Below, in pieces: positions 1,125 through 42,540 of a stretch of 64,000 bases of DNA (positions are counted from its first letter, which is position 1; the number at the start of each line of letters is the position of its first letter). The stretch is taken from NCBI RefSeq assembly GCF_004027225.2, contig NW_022651106.1, forward strand, positions 124,001-188,000, in the 5' to 3' direction. The position numbers and the translations under genes are program-made. Source of the stretch: Strigops habroptila (lineage: Eukaryota > Chordata > Aves > Psittaciformes > Psittacidae). The notes under the pieces are model-generated. The model was not told the DNA's origin, did not search any database, and saw only the letters and a program-made list of their open reading frames with translations.

Positions 1125-2907
1125 GCGGCTGCTGCGCTCGGCGGGCGGTTGGACGGCGCTGCTGCTGCTGGCGCTGGCCGTGGCCGCGCTGCCCCTCTGC
1201 CGCCCCACAGCGGGCGCCGTGGGCCGCGCGGCGGCGCGCTGGGCCGTGGGGGCCGCGCTGGGCACAGGCGCCCCCTGCTGGCTCGGCGACGCCTTGGACG
1301 CCGCGACGGGGCGGTGTTGGGCGCGGGGGGTCATCCATGGGGGGACCCTGCTCCTGCCCTACAGCGACCCCCAGAGCTGCCGCAGCCACGGGCACCGCTG
1401 GGAAGGGTTCGGGGTGTCCCCCCAAGCTTTCGCCTTGGTTCATTGCGGGTTGGGTTTGGCCGAAGAGGTGGGAGCTTTGGGGGTGCTGCTGTATGGGGCG
1501 GGGGGGAAAGGGAAGGGGAGGTGGGGGGGGAGGTGGGGCGGGGGGCGGGGGGAGCGGCAAGGGATGGGTTATGGCCGTGGGGAACGCTATGGGGTGGAGT
1601 GGAAGGGTGATGGAATGGGTTCTATCCATGGGGAACGCTATGGGGCAGAGTGGAAGGGTGATGGGATGGGTTATGGCCGTGGGGAACGCCATGGGGCAGA
1701 GTGGAAGGGTCATGGAATGGGTTCTATCCATGGGGAACGCTATGGGGCAGAGTGGAAGGGTGATGGGATGGGTTCTAGCCATGGGGAACATCAAGGGGTT
1801 GAGTGGAAGGGTCAATGGGAGCGTCAAGGGATGGGTTCTATCCATGGGGAACGCCATGGGGCAGAGTGGCAGGGTCATGGGGAACGTCAAGGGATGGGTT
1901 ATGTCCATGGGGAACGCTATGGGGCTGAGTGGAAGGGTCATGGGATGGGTTCTAGCCATGGGGAACATCAAGGGGTTGAGTGGAAGGGTCAATGGGAGCG
2001 TCAAGGGATGGGTTCTATCCATGGGGAACGCCATGGGGCAGAGTGGCAGGGTCATGGGGAACGTCAAGGGATGGGTTATGTCCATGGGGAACGCTATGGG
2101 GCTGAGTGGAAGGGTGGTGGGATGGGTTATAGCCATGGGGAACATCAAGGGGTTGAGTGGAAGGGTCATGGGATGGGTTATATCCATGGGGAACATCAAG
2201 GGGTGGGTTATATCCATGGGGAAGGTCAACCTATGGGGTGGAGGGGCCGTGGGGAGCCCCATGGGGTGTGGGAGCCCCATGGGATGGGCTATGGAGGACC
2301 CCAAGGGCAGGGGGGCCCCAACGGGACCTGGAGCTTCTGGAGCTGGTTGCGGGCTCTGCCGTGGGTCGGCTGGGTCTTTGGGATGGGGGGCCCGTCCCCT
2401 ATGGGGCCACCGTCACCTATAGGGCCACCACCATCATCTATGAGGTGCCCATCACCTATAGGGCCACCATTGTCATCTATGGGCCCACCATCCCCTATGA
2501 GGTCCCCATCGCCCATGAGGTCCCCATCCCCATCTATGAGGTCCCCATCCCCATCTATGAGGTCCCCATCCCCTAGGAGGTCCCCATCGCCCATAGCCCC
2601 ATCACTTATGGGGCCCCCATCCCCTATGGCCCCCCCCCCTCCATCTATGGGGCCACCCTGGCAAGAAGAACCCATAGAAGAGCCCAAACGTCCCGGCACG
2701 GCCTTGTCCCTCCTCTTCCTCCTCAACGTGGCCTTGATCCCCCTCTGGCACTTCCTATTGGCCGTCACCTTGACCTACCGCCACGATTGGCCGAGGAACG
2801 CGGCCGGCGCCGCCATTGGCTGGGCCTCGTGGGCCATCACCTATCGCTGCTGGTACCGCTACCCGTGGTCACCCGGACCTCCTGGTTTGGGTCTTCCAGC
2901 ACCTTAA
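1125..2907 (+). CDS. FITM1: FITM1-like fat storage-inducing transmembrane protein, terminal exon with expanded loop
   Basis: FITM proteins are ER multi-pass membrane proteins for lipid-droplet biogenesis; FIT2 acts as an acyl-CoA diphosphatase. A splice acceptor (CCCGCAG) precedes codons starting RLLRSAGGWT, matching the family's NSAWGWT region. Next come a hydrophobic helix, a TGRC segment (family TGSC) and SCRSHGHRWEGFGVSP..LAEE, which aligns to the family SCLAAGHQWRGYTVSS..MAEE. After about 390 repeat-derived residues the frame resumes with LLFLLNVALIPLWHFLL and ends YPWSPGPPGLGL, close to FITM1 FLLNVLLLGLWNFLL and QPWSPGSPGHGL. The second family histidine is kept (YRHDW versus YFHQY), but the first is Gln (SPQAF versus SSHTF). 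Exon 1 is not seen. The identification rests on remembered human FITM1. Whether the loop is translated or spliced out is open. It is convergent with IGHY. Confidence 0.85.
1545..2240 (+). repeat. 51/63-bp in-frame minisatellite inside the FITM1-like frame
   Basis: About twelve units encode variants of the 17-residue motif GYGRGERYGVEWKGDGM, some extended to 21 residues by an extra ERQG-type block. All unit lengths are multiples of three, so the FITM1 frame stays open. The minus strand and another plus frame are open too, so openness alone does not prove translation. Confidence 0.85.
2385..2650 (+). repeat. Short Pro/Ser-rich coding-frame repeat
   Basis: Degenerate units of the type tcccctatagggccacc and tctatgaggtccccatcccc encode PSPMGPP and MRSPSPS runs in the FITM1 frame. 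The array lies just before the conserved LLFLLNV helix. It could be a low-complexity loop or the pyrimidine-rich 3' part of a new intron. Confidence 0.75.
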
Positions 2908-9589: not shown

Positions 9590-9936
9590 TCACTTCCTTT
9601 TACCGGGGCTCTTATTGATGCTGCGCTGGATGAACCTCATGGGCAGCCCCTCGTGGACCACCATGCACACGTAGGTTGTCCCCTTGTTCCAGTCCTCCCT
9701 CTTCACCACCAGGCGGCTGTAGAGGAAGTAGGAGGCATCTCCCGCCTTCTCCTTCATGGGAGGGGTGGTCTCGTAGGCTGAGTCCTCCAACGAGTCCTGG
9801 TTCTTCTGCCACTCCACCGAGATGGACTCGGGGTAGAAGCCTCGCACCAAGCAGGTCAAGCTCAAGGTGGCATGGGACCCGCTCAGCTCCTCCGGTGGGG
9901 GTGGTAAGAGGTAGACGCTGGGGGTCAAGCGCTTGC
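9590..9936 (-). CDS. IGHY: IGHY CH4 exon (secreted terminus)
   Basis: The acceptor CCTATAG precedes [18 protein letters not shown]. The domain has both Ig cysteines (LTCLVRGF and YVCMVVHE), the C-strand Trp in VEWQKN, and [20 protein letters not shown]. It ends INKSPGKRK, then a stop. As in avian IgY and mammalian IgG there is no J-chain tailpiece. An internal donor (CCCCG|GTAAAA, GT at 9603-9602) allows splicing to the membrane exons. About 115 residues. The nearest known match is avian upsilon CH4. Confidence 0.95.
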
Positions 9937-9949
9937 CTATAGGGGACAC

Positions 9950-10915
9950 CATGGGGGTGAAGCTTATGGAGATGCTACCACCCAAAACGCCCTGACGGCA
10001 GGTCAGAGACCCCAAAAGCACCGTGGAATGAAGCCCGTGGAGATGCCACCAGCCCATGAGCACCGCAAAGCAAACCCTGCAGAGATGCCGCCACCTCCAA
10101 AACCGGCAGGAACTGAAGCCTATGGAGATGCCACCACCCAAACTAACCCGCTCGGAGGTCAGAGACCCCCAAAACCACCGTGGAATGAAGCCCATGGAGA
10201 TGCCACCAGCCCCATAGCAATGTGAATGAAGCTCATAATGATGCCACCAGGCCCATAGCAGTGATGGGTGAAGCCCCATGGAGGTGCCACCAGCACCAAA
10301 ACCAACAGGACTTGAACCCCATGGAGATACCACCACCCAAACCAACCCTGTTTGAGGTCAGGGTCTCAAAACCGCTTGAATCGAGGCCATAGACCCCCAT
10401 AACCACCATGAACGGAACCCCACTGAGATGCCACCACCACCCATATCAATGATAGGGGAACCCCATTGAGATGCCACCACCCAAACCAACCCCATTCGAT
10501 GTCAGAGACCCCACAACCACCACGAATTGAACCCTCTGGAGATACCACCACCTCCAAACCCACCGTTATCTAAACCCCACTGAGATGCCACCACCCAAAC
10601 CAACCCAATTCGATGTCAGAGACCCCACAACCACCACGAATTGAACCCTGTGGAGATACCACCACCTCCAGACCCACCGTTATCTAAACCCCACTGAGAT
10701 GCCACCACCCAAACCAACCCAATTCGATGTCAGAGACCCCACAACCACCACGAATTGAACCCTGTGGAGATACCACCACCTCCAGACCCACCGTTATCTA
10801 AACCCCACTGAGATGCCACCACCCAAACCAACCCAATTCGATGTCAGAGACCCCATAACCACCACGAATTGAACCCTGTGGAGATGCCACCACCCTATAA
10901 ACCCACCCTATAGGT
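9950..10915. repeat. 118-bp repeats in IGHY CH3-CH4 intron
   Basis: At least three near-identical units of about 118 bp (starts near 10562, 10680 and 10798) carry actgagatgccaccaccc and gttatctaaacccc. Older diverged copies lie to 9950. The gagatgccaccac core recurs in the neighbouring CH2-CH3 intron. Confidence 0.9.
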
Positions 10916-24489: not shown

Positions 24490-26050
24490 GGGGGGGGAGG
24501 AGATGGTGGAGATGATGGAGATGATGGAGGTGGATGGAGATGGATGATGGATGGAGATGGATGGAGATGGATGGAGGTGGATGGAGATGATGGAGGTGGA
24601 TGGAGGTGGATGGGGATGGATGATGGATGGAGATGGATGGAGGTGGATGGAGATGGATGGAGATGATGGAGGTGGATGGAGGTGGATGGGGATGGATGAT
24701 GGATGGAGATGATGGATGGTGGATGGAGATGATGGATGGAGATGATGGAGGTGGATGGAGATGGATGGGGATGATGGAGATGATGGAGGTGGATGATGGA
24801 TGGAGATGGATGATGATGGATGGAGATGGATGGAGATGGATGATGATGGATGGAGATGGATGGAGATGGATGGAGATGGATGGAGATGGATGGAGATGGA
24901 TGGAGGTGGATGGAGATGATGGAGGTGGATGGAGGTGGATGGGGATGGATGATGGATGGAGATGGATGGAGGTGGATGGAGGTGGATGATGGATGGAGAT
25001 GATGGAGGTGGATGGAGGATGGAGATGGATGGAGGTGGATGGAGGTGGATGGAGATGGATGATAGATGGAGATGATGGAGATGATGGAGGTGGATGGAGG
25101 TGGATGAAGGTGGATGAAGGTGGATGGAGATGGATGGAAGTGGGTGATGGGGTGAAAAGGGGTGGAATTAGGGGCAAAGGAATGAGATTTGGGGGGAAAT
25201 TGGTGGAATTCGGGGAAATGGGGGGAAAAAGGAAATTTGAGGCAAATTGAGGTAAATTTGGGGAAATTCGAGGGGAAATGAGGAAATCTGAGGCAAATTT
25301 GGGGAAAATCGGGGCAAATCTGAGGAAATTTGAGGAAAATCCATGGAATTTGAGGGAATTTGAGGCAAATCCGTGGAATTTGAGGGAGTTTGAGGCAAAT
25401 TTGGGGAAATCGGGGGGAAACTGAGGAAATGTGAGGAAAATTTGTGGAAATTGGGTGGAAAGTGATGAAATTTGAGGCAGATTGAGAAAAATTTGGGGGA
25501 AAATGGGTGGAAACTGAGGAAATTTGAGGCAAATCTGTGGGAATTTGGGGAAATCTGATGAAATTCGAGGCAAATCTGCGGGAATTTGGGGAAATCTGAT
25601 GAAATCCGAGGCAAATCCGTGGGAATCTGGGGAAATCTGATGAGATTCGAGGCAAATCCGTGGGGATTTGGGGAAATCTGATGAGATTGGAGGCAAATCC
25701 GTGGGGATTTGGGGAAATCTGATGAAATTTGAGGCAAATTTGGGGGAAATCTGATGAAATTCGAGGCAAATCTGTGGGAATTTGGGGAAATCTGATGAGA
25801 TTCGAGGCAAATCCGTGGGGATTTGGGGAAATCTGATGAAATTCGAGGCAAATCCGTGGGAATCTGGGGAAATCTGATGAGATTGGAGGCAAATCCGTGG
25901 GGATTTGGGGAAATCTGATGAAATTTGAGGCAAATTTGGGGGAAATCTGATGAAATTCGAGGCAAATCCGTGGTAATTTGGGGGAAATCTGATGAGATTC
26001 GAGGGAAACTCGTGGAAATCGGGGGGAAATTTGACGGCATTCGGGTGGAC
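24490..26050. repeat. Repeats in IGHA CH2-CH3 intron
   Basis: gatggatggagatggatgg microsatellite-like DNA to about 25150, then units of about 45 bp with ggggaaatctgatgaaatt and cgaggcaaatccgtgg. The minus-strand frames (Phe/Pro/Ser-rich) are artefacts. Confidence 0.92.
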
Positions 26051-26156
26051 GCGGGTGGACGGAGCCACCTCCACCCCTCCGTAACCCCATTGAGAAGCTC
26101 TTGGTGCCCCCTTTGGGCCTCGGCGCCCACCCTGAGCTCCTCCAAACCCCCTTTAG

Positions 26157-26474
26157 ATGTGAAGCCCGAGGTGGAAGTCGTCATCTTGCCGCCAGCCCTT
26201 GAGGACCTGTACCTGAAGCAGAACTCCACCATCACGTGCGTGGTCCTCAACCTCAAATCCACCGAGGACGTGGCGTTCTCCTGGAGCAGGGACAAAGGGA
26301 GCCCATTGGACGTCACCACGGGGGAGGTGGAGAAGTTGCCCAATGGGCTCAATGGGCTCAGCAGCTCCTTGAAGATCTGCGCCGAGGAATGGAACTCGGG
26401 GGAGACGTTCTCCTGCAGCGTCAACGTCCCGGAGCTCCAGGAACCCATCACCAGGTCCATCAAGAAGGACACAG
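26157..26474 (+). CDS. IGHA: IGHA CH3 exon
   Basis: The acceptor CCTTTAG and the donor CACAG|GTAGGA bound 318 nt. It encodes [20 protein letters not shown], the sequon [41 protein letters not shown] and ITRSIKKDT. Both Ig-fold cysteines, the C-strand Trp and the E-strand region are in place. Confidence 0.94.
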
Positions 26475-26559
26475 GTAGGACATGGAGCTCCGGAGCCACC
26501 CGCTATGGATGGGGATGGGTGGGGGGGGATGGTGGTGGCCACCAATGGGAGGTGGGTTG

Positions 26560-27745
26560 GGGCAGGGGGATGGCGGTGGTTGGACAAGGTGGGTCTATGG
26601 GAAGGGTCCAAGCCCATTGGAAGGGTCTAAACCCATTGGGACATCCAATGGGGAGGGTCTACTGGGAGATGATGGTCAACTGGTGGGGTCAAAATCCATT
26701 GGAGAGGTCTAAAGGCCATTGGAAAGGTCTAAGCCCATTGGAAGAGGTTGGTCTAATGGGAGATGATGGTCAACTGGAAGAGTCCAAGCCCATTGGAAGG
26801 GTCTAAACCCATTGGGACATCCAATGGGGTTGGTCTACTGGGAGATGATGGTCAACTGGAAGGGTCTAAGTCAATTGGAAGAGGTTGTTCTGGTGGAAGA
26901 TGATGGTCAACTAAGCCCATAGGAAGGGTCTAAGTCAACTGGAAGGGTCTAAACCCATTGGGACATCCAATGGGGAGGGTCTACTGGGAGATGATGGTCA
27001 ACTGGTGGGGTCTAAGTCCATTGGAGGGGTCTAAAGGCCATTGGAAAGGTCTAAGCCCATTGGAAGAGGTCGATCTAGAGGAAGATCTTGGTCTATGGGA
27101 AGGGTCTAAGTCAACTGGAAGGGTCTAAACCCATTGGGACACCCAATGGGGATGGTCTACTGGGAGATGATGGTCAACTGGTGGGGTCTAAGTCCATTGG
27201 AGGGGTCTAAAGGCCATTGGAAAGGTCTAAGCCCATTGGAAGAGGTTGATCTAGAGGAAGATCTTGGTCTATGGGAAGGGTCTAAGTCAACTGGAAGGGT
27301 CTAAGTCCATTGGAAGAGGTTGGTCTGGTGGAAGATGATGGTCAACTAAGCCCATAGGAAAGGTCTAAGCCCATTGCAAAGGTCTAAGCCCATTGGAAGA
27401 GGTCAATCCAGAGGAAGATCTTGGTCTATTGGAGGGGTCTAAGTCAACTGGAAGGGTCTAAACCCATTGGGACACCCAATGGGGATGGTCTACTGGGAGA
27501 TGATGGTCAACTGGTGGGGTCTAAGTCCATTGCAAGGGTCTAAGTCCATTGGAAGAGGTTGTTCTGGTGGAAGATGATGGTCAACTAAGCCCATAGGAAG
27601 GGTCTAAGTCAACTGGAAGAGTCTAAACCCATTGAGACATCCAATGGGGATGGTCTACTGGGAGATGATGGTCAACTGGAAGGGTCTAAGTCCATTGGGA
27701 GGGCCTAAACCCCATTGGAAAGGTCCAAGCCCACCCCCATTGACC
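26560..27745. repeat. Repeats in IGHA CH3-CH4 intron
   Basis: Units such as aagcccattggaagggtcta and gggagatgatggtcaact. They form longer composite blocks of about 130-330 bp that repeat several times. No genes. Confidence 0.9.
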
Positions 27746-41215: not shown

Positions 41216-41370
41216 CCTTCCACGATGGACCTATGGAAGTGCTGGATGGTGGCATCTTCTCAGACCTGAAGGTCTTCTCCAACCCACCTCCTCCATACCT
41301 GAACCCCAACGCCACCGAGACGCCTTCAGGCTGGTTGCCCCCCAAAGCCACGTCCCCACCATGGACTTAC

Positions 41371-41685
41371 AGTTACATTCCTGAGCTTTGCTGATGTTCC
41401 TCATCTCCCCGTCCACTTGACACGTGTAGATGGCCCCCGAGTTCCACTCCGCTTCGGTGACCACCAGGCGGCTGTTGGTGACAGAGAGGCCCCCTTTGGC
41501 CAAGGTCTCGGTGATGGCAGCGTCTTGGAGGTCGAGGCCGTTCTTGAGCCATTGGATGGGAGGATTGGGAGGACCTTGGACGTGGCACAAGATGGTGGCG
41601 TTGCGGTAAGGACCTTGGAATTCCTCCCGGGATGGGGCGTACAGGGTGAGCGTGGGGAGCACGGGGGGAGCCGGGCGGCTGGAAC
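41371..41685 (-). CDS. IGHM: IGHM CH2 exon
   Basis: The acceptor CCCACAG and the donor AACT|GTAAGT bound 315 nt. It begins GSSRPAPPVLPTLTLYAPSR and continues with a RNAT sequon, ILCHVQGPPNPPIQWLKNG and GAIYTCQVDGEMRNISKAQE. A C-terminal Cys (QECN) suits inter-heavy-chain bonding. Two N-glycosylation sequons (NAT and NIS). Confidence 0.95.
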
Positions 41686-41694
41686 CTGTGGGGT

Positions 41695-42540
41695 GAAGGA
41701 GAAGGGAGAAGGATGAAGGACAAGGGTGGAGCAGGAGGGGTGGAGCTGGAGAAGGATGAGGGTGAAGGGGAAAGATGGATGGAGAAGAAGGGTGGAGGAC
41801 AAGGATGGAGAAGGATAAAGGACAAGGATGGAGAAGGAAGAAGAATGAAGGACCAGGATGGAGAAGGACCAGGATGGAGAAGGACCAAGATGAAGGACCA
41901 GGATGGAGAAGGAAGAAGGATGAAGGATGGAGAAGGAAGAAGAATGAAGGATGGAGAAGGAAGAAGGGTGAAGGACAAGGATGGAGAAGGAAGAAGGATG
42001 AAGGATGGAGAAGGGTGAAGGACAAGGATGGAGAAGGATGAAGGACCAAGATGGATAAGGAAGAAGGATGAAGGACAAGGATGGAGAAGGAGAATGATGA
42101 AGGACAAGGAAGGAGAAGGATGAAGGACCAGGATGGAGAAGGAAGAAGAACAAGGATGGAGAAGGAGGAAGGACCAGGATGGACAAGGAGGAAGGACCAG
42201 GATGGACAAGGAAGCAGGATGAAGGACCAGGATGGAGAAGGAAGAAGGACAAGGATGGAGAAGGAGAATGATGAAGGACCAGGATGGAGAAGGAAGAAGG
42301 ACAAGGATGGAGAAGGAGAATGATGAAGGACCAGGATGGAGAAGGAAGAAGGATGAAGGACCAAGATGGAGAAGGAAGAAGGACCAGCAAGGAGAAAGAT
42401 GAAGGACAAGGATGGAAAAGGACCAGGATGGAGAAGGAAGAAGGACCAGGATGGAGAAGGAAGAAGGACCAGGAAGCAGAAAGATGAAGGACAAGGATGG
42501 AAAAGGACCAAGATGCAGCAGGAAGAAGGCACCAGTCAAC
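41695..42540. repeat. Purine-rich repeat in IGHM CH1-CH2 intron
   Basis: Units ggatggagaaggaagaagg and atgaaggaccaggatgg. It ends in a C-run at 42555-42600 next to CH1. The Ser/Phe/Leu-rich minus frames are artefacts. Confidence 0.93.

What the first reader, a model, noticed from the sequence alone, without database searches (positions are those of the whole stretch)
1498..2685. About 390-residue in-frame repeat insertion in a FITM1 inter-helix loop
The loop is only about a dozen residues in human FITM1. Here 51- and 63-bp units (17 and 21 residues) plus a Pro/Ser repeat keep the frame open between two conserved helices. Either the protein carries a giant Gly/His/Glu-rich and PSP-rich loop, or the insert has become a new intron. 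Both would be unusual for this compact family.
Basis: partly seen in the sequence, partly recalled or inferred. Interest (0 to 1): 0.8.

Follow-up and report, generated by a model that had tools for sequence, protein, structure and literature searches.

The report
Frame-keeping repeat loop inside bird FITM1
In a bird genome, a fat-storage membrane protein (FITM1) carries a 392-residue loop made largely of DNA repeats that change length almost only in whole codons, which suggests that the repeat instability typical of tiny bird chromosomes has here entered a protein-coding exon.

Summary
Exon 2 of a bird FITM1 (window 1125-2907) carries 1,176 bp (1507-2682, 392 codons) of 51/63-bp Gly/His/Glu units, a short Trp-rich link and 15-21-bp Pro/Ser units in the TM4-TM5 loop. 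In the same genome's FITM2 that loop is about a dozen residues. With exon 1, found upstream of the window, the gene reads as 636 aa. A second copy on the scaffold (probably the other haplotype) reads as 646 aa and differs by one 30-bp in-frame repeat.

An open frame alone is weak evidence here. Better: 10 of 11 length-changed units in the insert differ by multiples of 3 (the exception, -2, is followed by +5), against 93 of 592 in 60 other arrays of the scaffold. I favour a translated, length-variable, disordered cytosolic loop, made by avian dot-chromosome 'sequence stuttering' inside a coding exon. The main stuttering study saw no case crossing into exons; a small emu IRF3 precedent exists.

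Not excluded: phase-matched splice-like sites (1520 or 1532 to 2576) could make it a young intron or an exitron. The protein also lacks the family's first catalytic His. RNA would decide; none could be examined.

The parts
1125..2907 (+). FITM1 exon 2 (last exon, stop TAA at 2905-2907); its first base completes the codon begun in exon 1, which lies outside the window at C78:122117-122244
   Evidence: phase-matched join, donor AAC|GTGAGT, acceptor CCCGCAG|G, intact in both copies
1126..1506 (+). conserved FITM part: second membrane helix to the end of TM4, with the paired cysteines of the lumenal loop
   Evidence: alignment to FITM2 of the same genome
1417..1425 (+). C2 motif position: Ser-Pro-Gln where FITM2 of the same genome has Ser-Gly-His (first catalytic His missing)
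   Evidence: motif definition from PMC5798408 section 10
1507..2682 (+). in-frame insert, 392 codons, in the TM4-TM5 loop (predicted cytosolic)
   Evidence: topology from a PMC11484260 passage and PMC9644577 section 3
1520..1533 (+). two donor-like sites GAG|GTGGGG (last exon bases 1520 and 1532, phase 2)
   Evidence: recalled consensus matrix
1561..2224 (+). Gly/His/Glu array: 51- and 63-bp units, then 30- and 25-bp units; the other copy has one extra 30-bp piece near 2000
2326..2379 (+). unrepeated Trp-rich stretch TWSFWSWLRALPWVGWVF, possible membrane-surface segment
   Evidence: mean hydrophobicity 0.50, moment 0.26; modest
2389..2652 (+). Pro/Ser array: 15-, 18- and 21-bp units (GPPSPM, RSPSPSM and the like)
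2576..2577 (+). acceptor-like site CCCCTAG|G (first exon base 2577, phase 2)
2683..2904 (+). conserved FITM part: TM5, lumenal HxxxR (2782-2796, second His kept), TM6 and C-terminus

Best explanation
This is the FITM1 gene of a bird, near DCAF11 and antibody heavy-chain constant genes on a repeat-rich, dot-type scaffold. The local repeat instability of such chromosomes has expanded two minisatellites inside exon 2. Because the exon is translated (inferred), only length changes that keep the frame survived, so the array became a long, low-complexity, length-variable loop between TM4 and TM5. By family topology that loop faces the cytosol, away from the lumenal site, where a long disordered stretch can be tolerated. 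Shown: the insert, its unit lengths, two intact copies differing by 30 bp, loss of the C2 histidine. Inferred: transcription, translation, cytosolic placement, and tolerance rather than a selected function.
For: 10 of 11 length-changed internal units are multiples of 3 against 93 of 592 in 60 other arrays; the exception, -2, is followed by +5 when the stretch is read nine bases further, which makes 10 of 12 with the two exceptions adding up to +3. In none of the 27 control arrays with five or more changed units are all changes multiples of 3 (largest share 16 of 22; counted from the table). Reduced by hand to about nine events, chance is 5e-5 at one in three and 6e-8 at 0.157. Two copies intact at 636 and 646 aa, differing in exon 2 by a single indel, of 30 bp; indels between the copies elsewhere are multiples of 3 in 14 of 143, 14 of 39 at 3 bp and over, 3 of 23 at 10 bp and over. 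Exon 1, splice sites and phase agree. FITM2 of this genome reads through the same loop without a break, and human FITM1 has two exons, so no old intron is seen there. The Gly array returned only the two FITM1 copies in the genome. The insert carries ATGGGG/CCCCAT at 30-46 per kb, like FITM1 intron 1 (39) and unlike the conserved exon parts (0-5) or the window mean (6.5): local origin.
Against: No RNA or protein evidence. Substitutions among the 11 Gly units of 48 bp or more (of 13) show no amino-acid constraint (frame 0: 4 silent, 9 changing; 31% silent against 24% expected, SD 12) and no excess at third positions. Differences between the copies within the insert are 4 changing and 3 silent. 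Phase-matched splice-like sites exist; pairs as good, similarly placed, occur in 0.25% of 6,484 overlapping random placements (0.9% if phase is ignored), thresholds set after seeing the sites. The Gly and Pro/Ser arrays are less GC-rich than the conserved parts (57% and 62% against 72%), as an intron or exitron might be. With a laxer gap penalty single gaps in the Pro/Ser array were multiples of 3 in only 3 of 14. PMC12954441 reports no stuttering crossing into exons. The finding was picked because the frame is open, so the frame test is partly conditioned.
Confidence: 0.7

Rival explanations
1. The insert is a newly made intron: splicing from 1520 or 1532 to 2576 (1,056 or 1,044 bp, both multiples of 3) leaves a protein of about 284-288 aa, and the repeats are ordinary intronic stuttering.
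For: Phase-matched sites scoring 7.62 and 6.94 against 7.88 and 7.86 for the known FITM1 intron; such pairs are rare in random placements (0.25%). Stuttering is reported to stay within introns. No amino-acid constraint among units.
Against: An intron need not change length by codons, yet nearly all length changes in the insert do, and so does the 30-bp difference between copies. No good branch-point match was seen by eye (consensus recalled). C-rich Pro/Ser repeats naturally resemble acceptors: five sites from 2422 to 2596 rank above 80% of the window's AGs. The matrix is recalled, not trained on birds.
Confidence: 0.13
2. The insert is an exitron: translated when retained, spliced out in frame at other times, giving a long and a short FITM1.
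For: Combines codon-multiple lengths with in-frame splice-like sites. Exitrons are described as stop-free parts of coding exons, about half with lengths that are multiples of 3, with weaker splice sites than retained introns and, in Arabidopsis, lower GC than exons (passages of PMC4484396).
Against: No transcript evidence; the splice sites rest on a recalled matrix; the sites may be chance products of G-rich and C-rich repeats.
Confidence: 0.12
3. The gene is dying or dead: the catalytic His is gone and the insert drifts without function.
For: C2 is SPQ and C3 is HDWPR; Pfam FIT is below its cut-off; 2 of 3 differences between copies in the conserved parts of exon 2 change the residue.
Against: Both copies are free of stops and frameshifts over 636 and 646 codons with a good intron. 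Passages of PMC5798408 speak of a subset of FITM1s, particularly in fish, with altered key residues and predicted lack of activity, so loss of catalysis is not peculiar to this gene.
Confidence: 0.05

Closest known systems
Avian dot-chromosome 'sequence stuttering' (PMC12954441; abstract, discussion part 1 of 2, section 8 part 1 of 2 and passages seen)
   Same: Local, imperfect tandem arrays of tens of bases, differing in length between copies, on a repeat-filled scaffold (95.6% of FITM1 intron 1 and 63.5% of the window lie in tandem repeats)
   Different: There the blocks are isolated in introns and no case crosses into exons; here the array sits inside an exon and keeps the frame
In-frame repeat extension of emu IRF3 exon 2 (PMC12220609; passages seen)
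   Same: In-frame codon repetition extending a bird exon, in both the authors' and the genomic coding sequence
   Different: Four-fold repetition at an exon edge; here 392 codons in the middle of an exon
FITM1/FITM2 fat storage-inducing proteins (PMC5798408 section 10 and passages; PMC9644577 section 3)
   Same: Two-exon gene as in human FITM1; homology to FITM2 over 206 aa with the paired lumenal cysteines and second catalytic His kept; DCAF11 as neighbour (human neighbourhood recalled)
   Different: 392-residue TM4-TM5 loop; first catalytic His replaced by Gln; third position Arg; with the start codon chosen here, no extra N-terminal helix like that predicted for human FITM1; a simple hydropathy scan shows only four clear membrane stretches, so TM3 and TM6 rest on the alignment
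Exitrons (PMC4484396; passages seen)
   Same: Stop-free part of a coding exon with splice-like ends, length a multiple of 3, lower GC than the flanking exon
   Different: Splicing not shown; made of minisatellites

Membership tests
FITM1 (FIT family) | sequence homology to FITM proteins | tested here: met
   BLASTP to the same genome's FITM2, E 2e-23 for this single comparison, 30% over 206 aa
FITM1 (FIT family) | Pfam FIT (PF10261) over its curated cut-off | tested here: not met
   15.4 bits for exons 1+2 without the insert, 13.8 for exon 2 with it, cut-off 21.4; FITM2 exon of the same genome 66.6. I therefore name it FITM1 on pairwise homology and neighbourhood, not on Pfam
FITM1 (FIT family) | DCAF11 as upstream neighbour | tested here: met
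   a 60-aa WD-repeat stretch upstream matches DCAF11 best (9ptu_A, 9.2e-22; next a generic WD-40 protein, 2e-19); that this is the human neighbourhood is recalled
FITM1 (FIT family) | six membrane helices | tested here: inconclusive
   hydropathy scan over 1.0 found four distinct stretches (residues 2-26, 50-68, 137-165, 572-590); the other two are placed only by alignment to FITM2
FITM1 (FIT family) | catalytic residues H-1 (C2), H-2 and the fifth residue (C3) | tested here: not met
   SPQ instead of SGH; H-2 kept; fifth residue R (definitions). Lowers the claim of enzyme activity, not of descent
Dot-chromosome sequence stuttering | local imperfect tandem arrays on a repeat-dense scaffold | tested here: met
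   that the scaffold is a dot chromosome is inferred from its repeats and size
Dot-chromosome sequence stuttering | confined to introns or intergenic DNA | tested here: inconclusive
   codon-multiple lengths argue for exon; splice-like sites leave intron open
Dot-chromosome sequence stuttering | length variation between alleles | tested here: inconclusive
   30 bp in the insert; intron 1 is 2,880 bp in one copy and 2,981 in the other. Whether the copies are alleles or a duplication is not settled
Exitron | alternative splicing inside a coding exon | not testable with these tools
   no RNA data

The most novel reading that the evidence does not exclude
Stuttering inside a coding exon is creating a new optional intron: the frame-kept array is translated when retained and removed in frame through splice sites that the repeats themselves supplied, so a bird dot chromosome shows intron birth and new disordered protein sequence in one step.
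Probability: 0.12. Interest if true: 0.75.

Novelty: new variant of a known kind. Interest (0 to 1): 0.5.

Why it matters
The main study of stuttering reports that repeat blocks do not cross into exons and that coding regions stay intact (PMC12954441). A 392-codon, frame-kept, length-variable array in an exon would show that the same process enters coding sequence under a codon filter, makes new disordered protein regions, and may help explain why genes on these chromosomes diverge and vanish. It is directly testable by cDNA and by length alleles in related birds.

Tried and rejected
Openness as proof of coding: rejected, since 2.3% of frame-windows on the same contig part are open by chance and a repeat in frame with an Ig domain at 41231-42535 is also open for hundreds of codons. 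Stop avoidance: single transitions that make a stop are few (38 of 663 in the Gly array), so the absence of stops carries little weight. Amino-acid selection among units: no signal. Eight-mer kinship to intron 1: raised for the Pro/Ser array (0.280 against 0.178, SD 0.028), not for the Gly array (0.091 against 0.112) or the link (0.166 against 0.154); the shuffle is approximate. Assembly artefact: unlikely, both copies carry the insert. FITM1 in birds in print: FITM1+chicken (9 papers), FITM1+DCAF11 (4) and FITM1+birds (2) listed nothing on a bird FITM1, judged by titles and abstract starts. (FITM1 with duck or goose words, any two) was too loose: 10 of 7,414 papers listed, none holding FITM1, so it settles nothing. 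The word FITM1 is absent from the main texts of PMC12954441, PMC9974502 and PMC12220609. Coding-exon stuttering: one search, 12 of 163 papers listed, led to the emu IRF3 case. FIT2 catalysis: one search. Species: globin exons match haemoglobin chains in the PDB, single-chain best hits being bird chains (bird origin recalled); not narrowed further. Structure prediction was not run: a single sequence would give a poor model. No other bird's FITM1 could be compared.

Full report
What is there. The window is C78:124001-188000 of a 1.149-Gb, 89-contig genome whose globins look avian (the bird origin of the PDB chains is recalled). Exon 2 of a FITM gene lies at 1125-2907. Its conserved parts match the same genome's FITM2 (E 2e-23, 30% over 206 aa), and a WD-repeat stretch upstream matches DCAF11 best, the neighbour of FITM1 in human (recalled). 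I found exon 1 at C78:122117-122244, outside the window, with a good donor and a phase that fits exon 2. The start codon is my choice: the frame is open upstream to C78:121826, so a longer N-terminus is possible and the lengths below would grow. Pfam's FIT model stays under its cut-off for this protein (15.4 against 21.4 bits), and a genome search with it listed FITM2 and two weak places but not FITM1; the name rests on pairwise homology and neighbourhood.

The insert. Between the end of TM4 (YGAGG) and the start of TM5 (PKRPGTALS) lie 392 codons (1507-2682): a Gly/Arg/Lys start, the 51/63-bp Gly/His/Glu array (1561-2224), a link with a Trp-rich stretch, and a Pro/Ser array (2389-2652). The corresponding FITM2 loop is about a dozen residues, by eye. 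A genome search with the Gly array found only the two FITM1 copies; that search skips simple repeats and common words.

Two copies. The scaffold has a 100-N gap at C78:112978-113077. C78:11085-83918 matches C78:113078-185410 in inverted order, in eight long pieces at 94.7-98.8% identity; nothing beyond 188000 was examined. I read this as the second haplotype placed beside the first, though an inverted duplication is possible. The FITM1 copies read as 636 and 646 aa, both intact. Exon 2 differs by one 30-bp in-frame repeat and ten substitutions: seven in the insert (4 changing, 3 silent) and three in the conserved parts (2 changing, 1 silent). Intron 1 is 2,880 bp in one and 2,981 bp in the other.

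Is it translated? Openness is weak evidence: 259 of 11,478 overlapping frame-windows of this length elsewhere are open. Unit lengths are stronger. In the Gly array 5 of 5 changed units differ by multiples of 3; in the Pro/Ser array 5 of 6. The exception is -2; read nine bases further, the next unit is +5, so the count becomes 5 of 7 with the two exceptions adding up to +3. With a laxer gap penalty single gaps in the Pro/Ser array were multiples of 3 in 3 of 14, because gaps were split within units; by the same method the Gly array gave 5 of 5, the upstream array 0 of 22 and two downstream arrays 2 of 2 and 4 of 22. I rely on the per-unit count. Its controls are 60 non-overlapping arrays of C78:113078-188000 (period 12-70, four copies or more, under 2.5 kb, FITM1 exon 2 left out): 93 of 592 changed units are multiples of 3, and 45 of 287 where the period itself is a multiple of 3. 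Reducing repeated copies by hand to about nine events gives 5e-5 at one in three and 6e-8 at 0.157. The insert was noticed because it is open, so these figures are optimistic.

Evidence the other way. Substitutions among units show no amino-acid constraint. Donor-like sites at 1520 and 1532 and an acceptor-like site at 2576 have the same phase and score close to the known FITM1 intron; such pairs are rare in random placements (0.25% of 6,484, thresholds set after seeing them). The arrays have lower GC than the conserved parts. So a young intron or an exitron stays possible.

Mechanism. PMC12954441 (abstract, discussion part 1, section 8 part 1 and passages seen) describes sequence stuttering on avian dot chromosomes: local, length-variable repeat growth, isolated in introns, with no case crossing into exons. 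This scaffold looks the same: 63.5% of the window and 95.6% of FITM1 intron 1 lie in tandem repeats, and the insert shares the ATGGGG-rich style of intron 1. I infer that the same process works inside exon 2, with selection removing frameshifts. PMC12220609 (passages) gives a small precedent, an in-frame four-fold repetition in emu IRF3 exon 2. Reviews put both FITM ends in the cytosol and the two histidines of TM4 and TM5 towards the lumen, so the TM4-TM5 loop should be cytosolic and able to carry a disordered stretch. My own hydropathy scan showed only four clear membrane stretches, so the full topology here is assumed from the family.

Activity. The C2 motif is SPQ where FITM2 here has SGH, and C3 is HDWPR. 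PMC5798408 (abstract, section 10 and passages) calls a changed first histidine in a Limulus copy likely to inactivate, found that single changes in the presumed site stopped yeast rescue, and notes altered key residues in a few FITM1s, particularly in fish. I expect no acyl-CoA diphosphatase activity; a lipid-binding or partner role, or slow decay, remains open.

Verdict. Real feature, coding favoured at about 0.7, new intron 0.13, exitron 0.12, dying gene 0.05. RNA is needed.

Noticed in passing
window 9590-10357 (-), 25922-26806 (+), 41231-42535 (-): Immunoglobulin C1-set domains; the first matches antibody heavy chains. Naming them upsilon, alpha (opposite strand) and mu, the order known in birds, is from recall. 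FITM1 and DCAF11 lie beyond the upsilon-like gene.
   Followed up: partly
C78:11085-83918 against C78:113078-185410: Inverted near-copy across a 100-N gap, probably an unpurged second haplotype; useful for allele comparison, a hazard for gene counts.
   Followed up: partly
window 1417-1425 and 2782-2796: FITM1 lacks the first catalytic histidine and has Arg at the third catalytic position, in both copies.
   Followed up: partly
window 41231-42535 (-): A long repeat is open in the frame of an Ig domain; it is probably intron, a warning against using open frames as evidence on such chromosomes.
   Followed up: no
window 2326-2379: Unrepeated Trp-rich stretch inside the insert, possibly membrane-surface binding.
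   Followed up: partly
C78:121826-122116: The frame of FITM1 exon 1 is open upstream of the chosen ATG through an ATGGGG-type repeat, so a second repeat-derived coding piece at the N-terminus is conceivable.
   Followed up: no
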